DNA of 39,981 nt from an uncultured Prevotellaceae bacterium (lineage in GTDB: Bacteria > Bacteroidota > Bacteroidia > Bacteroidales > Bacteroidaceae): NCBI GenBank assembly GCA_947167835.1, contig CAMVJO010000006.1:1-39981 (forward strand), in the 5' to 3' direction. The notes below the pieces were generated by a model, which made no database searches, had not been told where the DNA came from, and saw only the letters and a list, made by a program, of their open reading frames with translations. Below are positions 38,401 to 39,726 of the stretch, in pieces. The translations under genes and the position numbers were made by a program. Each line of letters starts with the position of its first letter. Within the stretch, counting starts at the first letter, position 1.

Positions 38401-39726
38401 ATGAATATGAAAAAGAACAAGAACAAAATCACGCAGGGCGGTATGCTTGTCAGCAACGGACAGCGCCTGCCCGATGTAGTGTTGCAGATGCCGGAAATAT
38501 TCCTTTTCGACATGAAAGCCTACATGAGTTCCGTTACACTTGCCAAGAGCATAGACTATTCCAATCGTGCAAGGCTCTACGATATGTATGAATCTGCCAT
38601 GCTCGACCTCCACCTTTCAGGAACCCTTGACAAACGGCTACGCGGTGTGACACGCTTCCCGATAGAGTTCCGCAGGGATGGCAAACCCGATGAAGTCATC
38701 AACGCACAACTGCGCTCTCCCTGGTTCAAGCAACTGCGCAAAGACCTTATCATGTCCGAGTTCTGGGGATTCACGCTCCTACAGTTCTATACCGACGAGA
38801 ACGGCAATTTGCGCTACGACCTCATAGACCGTAAGCACTACAATCCCATACGCCGCGAGATACTGCGCTTTCAGAACGATCAACAGGGCTTGTCTATCGA
38901 AAACTTCCCTAACTGTCTCTTCGTGGGTACGGAAAGAGGCCTTGGCATCTTCGCAGAACTCATGCCTGCCGTGCTCTACAAACGCGGCGATATGGCAGAC
39001 TGGGCACAGTTCTGCAACATCTTCGGTATGCCCATCCGTGAATACACCTACGATGCAGGGGACGAGACGGCACGTAAGCGGCTCATCGCTGATGCCCGAC
39101 GCCAAGGCTCAAATGCGGTGTATATCCATCCCAAGGATAGCGAACTGACACTGATTGAGGCGGGCAATAAGACCGGCAGCAGCGACCTCTACAGGACTTT
39201 TGCCGATTATTGGGACAGCAAGATCTCCATACGTATTCTGGGCAACACACTCACCACCGATGCCAAGGAGACCGGCACGCAATCGCTCGGCACAGTTCAC
39301 AAGGAGGAAGAGGATGACATGAACGCAGACGACCGCGACTTCATCCTGAACATCCTAAACTACGATATGCGTCCCATATTCACCTCGCTGGGATTCAACA
39401 CCGAGGGCGGAGAGTTTGTCTATGCACGAAAGGAAAAGATAGAACCGACGAAGCACATTGGCATCGTGGAGAAGCTGCAAGACATGGGACTGCCTATGGA
39501 CGATGACTGGCTCTACGAGACATTCTGCGTAGAAAAGCCCAAGGACTACAAGCAACAGAAGGCACAGAAGGAAGCCGAGAAACAGGCCGTGCGCGACAGT
39601 CTGAACAATACGACCGTGCCCGAGACTGAAAAACAGCCTTTGAACAGTGATAAAACAGCGTTCAAAAACCGTTTAAGCCGTTTTTTCGGCATAGCCCCGA
39701 CTATCGGGGCGGACACCGACTTCTGA
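38401..39726 (+). CDS. Portal protein (DUF935, Mu gp29-like)
   Basis: LRKDLIMSEFWGFTLLQF, WAQFCNIFGMPIREYTYDAGDE, LGNTLTTDAKETGTQSLGTVHKE. Confidence 0.88.
   Translation: MNMKKNKNKITQGGMLVSNGQRLPDVVLQMPEIFLFDMKAYMSSVTLAKSIDYSNRARLYDMYESAMLDLHLSGTLDKRLRGVTRFPIEFRRDGKPDEVINAQLRSPWFKQLRKDLIMSEFWGFTLLQFYTDENGNLRYDLIDRKHYNPIRREILRFQNDQQGLSIENFPNCLFVGTERGLGIFAELMPAVLYKRGDMADWAQFCNIFGMPIREYTYDAGDETARKRLIADARRQGSNAVYIHPKDSELTLIEAGNKTGSSDLYRTFADYWDSKISIRILGNTLTTDAKETGTQSLGTVHKEEEDDMNADDRDFILNILNYDMRPIFTSLGFNTEGGEFVYARKEKIEPTKHIGIVEKLQDMGLPMDDDWLYETFCVEKPKDYKQQKAQKEAEKQAVRDSLNNTTVPETEKQPLNSDKTAFKNRLSRFFGIAPTIGADTDF

What the first reader, a model, noticed from the sequence alone, without database searches (positions are those of the whole stretch)
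39681..39710. Candidate programmed -1 frameshift fusing the portal (gp29-like) to the downstream gp30/MuF-like head protein
Seen directly: the last codons of the portal ORF read CGT TTT TTC GGC, placing a T TTT TTC heptamer in the correct X XXY YYZ phase (39681-39687). A 6-nt spacer (GGCATA) follows, then a perfect 7-bp GC-rich hairpin GCCCCGA-CTA-TCGGGGC (39694-39710). The -1 frame is open from 39654 to the window end, through ...FF-RHSPDYRGGHRLLIDTLYYGEYEGHRGCACCNGTRFDN.... It contains no ATG, GTG or TTG until an ATG at 39888, which would fall well inside the predicted domain. The portal stop is at 39724-39726. Established: U UUU UUC plus a downstream stem-loop is a canonical bacterial/viral -1 frameshift signal, and genetically fused portal-MuF proteins exist in some phages. 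Inference: a fixed fraction of portal subunits carry a MuF-like extension made by recoding. I do not know of this being described for Mu-like phages.
Basis: partly seen in the sequence, partly recalled or inferred. Interest (0 to 1): 0.87.

Follow-up and report, generated by a model that had tools for sequence, protein, structure and literature searches.

The report
Ribosomal frameshift fusing portal to MuF
Mu-like viruses of gut and soil Bacteroidota bacteria carry a conserved slippery site and RNA hairpin that should make some ribosomes change frame, so that a share of the protein forming the virus's DNA gate carries an extra head domain, often tipped with an antibacterial toxin; this appears not to have been described.

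Summary
Every feature lies at the stated coordinates: portal ORF 38401-39726, T TTT TTC in phase at 39681-39687, 6-nt spacer, 7-bp GC hairpin at 39694-39710, and a start-free -1 frame. Comparative evidence makes this a conserved programmed -1 frameshift rather than a coincidence. Of 194 non-redundant relatives with MuF in the -1 frame, 192 keep an in-phase slippery heptamer 7-58 nt before the portal stop. T TTT TTC in phase occurs in only 5 of 77,834 control codons. RNA folding energy peaks sharply just after the heptamer, and the hairpin covaries. Relatives with portal and MuF in one continuous frame mostly keep the heptamer, six of them T TTT TTC plus hairpin, with a stop in the -1 frame 16-27 codons later. 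There the frame roles are swapped, as in dnaX, so selection appears to maintain both products. The extension carries the Phage_Mu_F domain and often a toxin-like C-terminus (CdiA_C, glutamine deamidase, LPD3, PBECR2). I infer that frameshifting sets the share of portal subunits bearing MuF-toxin. No protein-level proof was available. I found no published description in the open-access library searched. Known parts, new combination.

The parts
38401..39726 (+). portal protein gene (Mu gp29-like, DUF935/Portal_Mu); zero frame ends at TGA 39724-39726
   Evidence: ORF list; PF06074 E=1.6e-75; PHROG portal
39681..39687 (+). slippery heptamer T TTT TTC in X XXY YYZ phase of the portal frame
   Evidence: sequence; conserved in 167 of 194 non-redundant relatives, other slippery heptamers in 25 more
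39688..39693 (+). 6-nt spacer GGCATA
   Evidence: sequence; relatives mostly 3-7 nt to the first paired base
39694..39710 (+). stimulatory hairpin GCCCCGA-CTA-TCGGGGC (7 bp)
   Evidence: fold; energy minimum at this position across 192 relatives; covariation in relatives
39654..39980 (+). -1 frame open stretch; read from 39684 on after the shift it is the N-terminal part of the MuF-like head protein (truncated by the contig end)
   Evidence: 76% identical to the MuF ORF of L028, which hits PF04233
39724..39726 (+). portal stop codon TGA, bypassed in the -1 frame

Best explanation
This is a conserved programmed -1 ribosomal frameshift at the 3' end of the portal gene of Mu-like Bacteroidota phages. 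Ribosomes translating the portal gene pause at the GC hairpin, and a fraction slip back one base on T TTT TTC. Non-slipping ribosomes stop and make the plain portal. Slipping ribosomes continue into the -1 frame and make a portal-MuF fusion, which in many relatives ends in a toxin-like domain. Shown here: signal anatomy, conservation, synonymous constraint, covariation, start-free coding of the -1 frame, MuF and toxin-like domains in the extension, and retention of the signal with frame roles swapped in single-ORF relatives. Inferred: the frameshift happens at a fixed rate, the fusion co-assembles with plain portal so that a minority of the ring carries MuF inside the capsid, and this replaces the non-covalent recruitment known for SPP1 gp7 and delivers the MuF/toxin with the DNA.
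For: 192 of 194 non-redundant portal/MuF(-1) junctions have an in-phase slippery heptamer in the -1-open overlap: 167 T TTT TTC, 7 T TTT TTT, 11 A AAT TTT, 4 A AAA AAG, 3 others. Phe-Phe at the junction is encoded T-TTT-TTY in 174/181 cases versus 7/83 elsewhere in the same genes, where TTC is the preferred Phe codon. Mean MFE of 45-nt windows is about -15.5 kcal/mol directly after the heptamer versus about -6 to -10 elsewhere. Hairpin covariation: 33 double-change cells versus 8.5 in shuffles, score 0.279 versus 0.063, 0/500. In 115 of 192 no ATG/GTG/TTG appears in the MuF frame until more than 30 nt past the portal stop. That start-free stretch has pN/pS 0.56 in the MuF frame versus 0.99 and 1.28 in the other two. 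88 of 92 extensions hit Phage_Mu_F. Single-ORF portal-MuF relatives keep T TTT TTC + hairpin with a -1 stop 16-27 codons on, in at least three places on the portal tree. PHROG 35074 is a single family spanning portal and MuF.
Against: No frameshift product has been seen; no reporter or peptide data were available. About 25 of 192 relatives (the hankyphage group among them) have an ATG at or near the portal stop, so stand-alone MuF could also be made there. The A AAA AAG group and a few others lack a clear hairpin. The AlphaFold model of a natural fusion was too poor to show how MuF sits on the portal. pN/pS of 0.56 is only moderate purifying selection, and the first residues after the site partly reflect the RNA stem.
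Confidence: 0.92

Rival explanations
1. MuF is translated separately by re-initiation or leaky initiation near the portal stop, and the heptamer and hairpin are incidental.
For: In Mu gp30 starts at its own ATG with an RBS; about 25 of 192 relatives have an ATG within 30 nt after the portal stop or earlier in the MuF frame; hankyphage p00 is annotated with an ATG overlapping the portal stop.
Against: Most relatives have no start codon before the conserved MuF region. Heptamer and hairpin are conserved at DNA and RNA level even where an ATG exists. Several single-ORF fusions keep the same signal.
Confidence: 0.04
2. Transcriptional slippage on the T run adds or removes a base in the mRNA.
For: The site is a homopolymer run in most members; some relatives have A9 runs.
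Against: T6 is short for slippage. The 12 A AAT TTT/A AAT TTC members and one G GGA AAG member have no long run, yet most A AAT TTT members keep the downstream hairpin. Covarying hairpins 5-8 nt downstream fit a ribosomal signal.
Confidence: 0.03
3. Sequencing or assembly indel, or a decayed prophage gene.
For: The window is a contig end of a fragmented assembly.
Against: The same arrangement recurs in hundreds of independent genomes, including cultured phages (BK010646, OK632026, PQ571270) and a complete genome (Petrimonas sp. IBARAKI).
Confidence: 0.005
4. The hairpin is a transcription terminator or other RNA element and the heptamer a by-product of a conserved Phe-Phe.
For: GC hairpin at a gene end.
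Against: No T run follows it; the scan finds no terminator on either strand; no Rfam match. Phe-Phe elsewhere in these genes is encoded T-TTT-TTY in only 8%.
Confidence: 0.005

Closest known systems
Programmed -1 frameshift of tail assembly chaperone genes (lambda G/GT; Xu, Hendrix and Duda 2004, cited in PMC4378225 and PMC2628397)
   Same: Phage structural operon, X XXY YYZ site near the end of the first ORF, C-terminal extension in the -1 frame
   Different: Different genes (portal and MuF), a stimulatory hairpin, and the extension becomes a virion/toxin module rather than a tail chaperone
dnaX tau/gamma frameshift
   Same: In the single-ORF relatives the zero frame gives the long product and the -1 shift gives the short one, with a heptamer and hairpin
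   Different: Portal protein, T TTT TTC instead of A AAA AAG, no internal Shine-Dalgarno tested
MuF polymorphic toxins of temperate phages (Jamet et al. 2017, PMC5576092) and Bxa of Bacteroides phages (PMC11699363)
   Same: MuF domain encoded directly after the portal gene, variable toxin C-terminus (glutamine deamidase is shared with the Bxa family)
   Different: Those papers treat MuF as its own protein; here MuF is the frameshift extension of the portal
Permanent portal-MuF gene fusions (Microbacterium phages, PMC7302621; P. gingivalis phages annotated as one 852-aa portal)
   Same: Same two domains in one polypeptide
   Different: Described as plain fusions; in the P. gingivalis phage examined here and several other Bacteroidota single-ORF fusions a frameshift site with a nearby -1 stop is retained, so plain portal should also be made
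SPP1 gp6/gp7
   Same: MuF-like protein tied to the portal in low copy (1-2 per capsid, as cited in PMC5576092)
   Different: Non-covalent and separately translated

Membership tests
Programmed -1 ribosomal frameshift | Slippery heptamer in correct phase inside the overlap of the two frames | tested here: met
Programmed -1 ribosomal frameshift | RNA structure about 5-9 nt downstream | tested here: met
   covariation
Programmed -1 ribosomal frameshift | Downstream ORF coding, conserved and without its own start | tested here: met
   exception: about 25 of 192 with an ATG near the portal stop
Programmed -1 ribosomal frameshift | Frameshift product demonstrated | not testable with these tools
   no peptide or reporter data
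MuF superfamily (Phage_Mu_F) | PF04233 domain encoded downstream of portal | tested here: met
   88 of 92 -1-frame products of relatives; the window piece is truncated and too short to hit
MuF polymorphic toxin | Toxin domain at the C-terminus | tested here: met
   CdiA_C 17, LPD3 12, Gln_amidase 8 of 92; PBECR2 in single-ORF fusions; own-genome contig C91 carries MuF-like sequence ending in CdiA_C, E=1.2e-6
MuF polymorphic toxin | Immunity gene next to the toxin | tested here: inconclusive
   small ORF follows on C91 (810-1214), no Pfam hit
Mu-like (DUF935) portal | PF06074 domain | tested here: met
Tail assembly chaperone frameshift (G/GT) | Genes lie between major tail and tape measure genes | tested here: not met
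   the genes here are portal and MuF
dnaX-like frameshift (single-ORF relatives) | Heptamer in the long frame with a -1 stop shortly after | tested here: met
   L007, L054, L149, L150, L153, L155; not the window itself

The most novel reading that the evidence does not exclude
The frameshift is a counting device: its efficiency is tuned so that about one of the twelve portal subunits carries a covalently attached MuF-toxin projecting into the capsid, which leaves with the DNA and acts in the recipient cell. This two-product design is kept across the phages of a bacterial phylum even when the frame roles flip or the slippery motif changes.
Probability: 0.4. Interest if true: 0.92.

Novelty: new variant of a known kind. 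Interest (0 to 1): 0.82.

Why it matters
It explains how a very common group of gut phages (hankyphage and relatives) would make their MuF protein, often annotated with a wrong or missing start. It turns the open question of how a 12-fold ring acquires a low-copy partner into a testable one, since the ratio would be set by recoding. It also suggests that capsid toxins are built into the portal of many Bacteroidota phages. Annotation of MuF toxins such as Bxa homologues would need revision, and the swapped-frame relatives give a natural experiment suggesting that both products matter.

Tried and rejected
Alignments A1 and A2 were too diverse for pattern scans, replaced by A3 and A4. Two loci looked like +1 arrangements: L142 keeps T TTT TTC + hairpin and probably has an indel downstream; L145, a MAG, also has T6 but needs +1, unresolved. 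L060 and L068 have MuF-like ORFs in the -1 frame without a heptamer; they are distant, and L068 has an ATG overlapping the portal stop. Terminator and Rfam explanations rejected. AlphaFold of a natural fusion: mean pLDDT 63, pTM 0.36, not usable, no fold search run. No solved structure matches the MuF extension. Literature searches found no portal-MuF frameshift; the library is open-access only. The hankyphage paper reports capsid mass spectrometry, but its supplementary table could not be opened. A classic frameshift survey (PMC3199440) is not held.

Full report
1. The observation. The portal ORF 38401-39726 ends ...AGC CGT TTT TTC GGC ATA GCC CCG ACT ATC GGG GCG GAC ACC GAC TTC TGA. T TTT TTC (39681-39687) is in X XXY YYZ phase, followed by a 6-nt spacer and a 7-bp GC hairpin (39694-39710). 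The -1 frame is open from 39654 to the end with no ATG/GTG/TTG before 39888. The portal hits Portal_Mu, E=1.6e-75. The window is a complete contig of a fragmented genome, so the -1 ORF is merely cut. Contig C91 of the same genome begins inside the matching MuF sequence and ends that ORF in a CdiA_C domain. That C91 is the continuation is likely but not proven.

2. Chance. For this one sequence, synonymous recoding gives heptamer plus hairpin in 0.45% of trials. The comparison settles it. I collected 351 loci with a related portal from genomes, viral contigs and phage records, of which 303 have MuF in the -1 frame, 194 non-redundant. In 192 of these an in-phase slippery heptamer lies in the overlap, 7-58 nt before the portal stop. 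In the bodies of the same portal genes, T TTT TTC in phase occurs in 5 of 77,834 codons. Phe-Phe at the junction is T-TTT-TTY in 96%, elsewhere 8%.

3. RNA. Mean folding energy of 45-nt windows is about -15.5 kcal/mol directly after the heptamer, against about -6 to -10 at other offsets. A helix of at least 5 bp starting 4-9 nt after the heptamer is found in 162 of 192. In a gap-free set of 48, three stem pairs change on both sides, with 33 compensating cells against 8.5 in shuffles and a covariation score of 0.279 against 0.063, 0 of 500. In other relatives the stem sequence is wholly different but still pairs. The hairpin has no T tract after it and no Rfam match.

4. The -1 frame. In 115 of 192 there is no ATG/GTG/TTG in the MuF frame until more than 30 nt after the portal stop. 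The start-free stretch just past the stop shows pN/pS 0.56 in the MuF frame, 0.99 and 1.28 in the others. The extension carries Phage_Mu_F in 88 of 92 and toxin-like C-termini in many: CdiA_C 17, LPD3 12, glutamine deamidase 8. PHROG 35074 spans portal and MuF in one family.

5. Frame swap. Some relatives encode portal and MuF in one frame. Six of these (L007; the P. gingivalis phage L054/BK068092; L149; L150; Pedobacter zeae L153; L155) still have T TTT TTC at the same Phe-Phe and a GC hairpin, now with a stop in the -1 frame 16-27 codons later. Others have A AAA AAA or A AAT TTT with a -1 stop within a few codons (L008, L019, L351, L080). L162 lacks a junction heptamer and L163 is equivocal. 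On the portal tree the swapped state needs at least three changes among frameshift lineages, and the slippery motif itself changes several times (quick tree, shallow branches weak). This indicates selection for both products, not just for reaching MuF.

6. Range. The signal is in Bacteroides, Phocaeicola, Prevotella and relatives, Parabacteroides, Barnesiella, Petrimonas, Dysgonomonadaceae, Chitinophaga and Sphingobacteriaceae, and in cultured phages: hankyphage p00, BKO1-TP4, BS-TP1, Elizabethkingia TCUEAP3. In TCUEAP3 MuF was annotated from about 276 nt after the portal stop, where the first start codon lies. Mu and near relatives have a separate ATG in the +1 frame and no heptamer. RcapMu and Flavobacterium fF4 have A runs and MuF in the -1 frame, so the trick may reach further.

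7. Mechanism. Shown: signal, conservation, covariation, coding. Inferred: a share of ribosomes make portal-MuF. The portal C-terminus is expected to face the capsid lumen (general knowledge of portal structures, not tested here), so MuF and any toxin would sit inside with the DNA. In SPP1 the MuF protein gp7 binds the portal at 1-2 copies per capsid (as cited in PMC5576092); a covalent frameshift fusion would set such a ratio directly. AlphaFold of a natural fusion was too poor to add to this.

8. Novelty. Frameshifts in phage tail genes, MuF toxins (PMC5576092, PMC11699363) and permanent portal-MuF fusions (PMC7302621) are known. PRFect mentions MuF-like predictions in a different context (PMC10885494). 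RcapMu's GenBank record carries a note of a possible +1 frameshift at the portal end. I found no description of a conserved portal-MuF frameshift in the papers available.

Noticed in passing
window 31330-30828, - strand: Two overlapping ORFs upstream of the tape measure gene with A AAA AAA at 31034-31028 (- strand) 10 nt before the first stop; probably the usual tail assembly chaperone -1 frameshift.
   Followed up: partly
L357 (RcapMu NC_016165) portal end near 3589; L360 (Flavobacterium phage fF4) portal end near 3517: A runs with in-phase A AAA AAA just before the portal stop and MuF in the -1 frame; in RcapMu no start until 98 nt after the stop. Possible portal-MuF frameshift outside the main clade.
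   Followed up: partly
L079, L084, L085, L086 (other Bacteroidota): Portals ending in AAAAAAAAAG with MuF in the -1 frame, no clear hairpin: an apparently independent A AAA AAG version.
   Followed up: partly
L055 (Elizabethkingia phage TCUEAP3), L059 (jmh43_hp): Public annotation starts MuF at internal or late codons because no earlier start is available or chosen; likely mis-annotated N-termini.
   Followed up: yes
L361 (G000:C91) 810-1214 and 1849-3405: A small ORF follows the toxin-like MuF end (possible immunity gene) and a chromosomal-looking carboxylase gene starts soon after, so a prophage end may lie here.
   Followed up: no
window 39676-39691: GCCG-TTTTTT-CGGC can form a small hairpin around the slippery site itself in the window; not general among relatives.
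   Followed up: no
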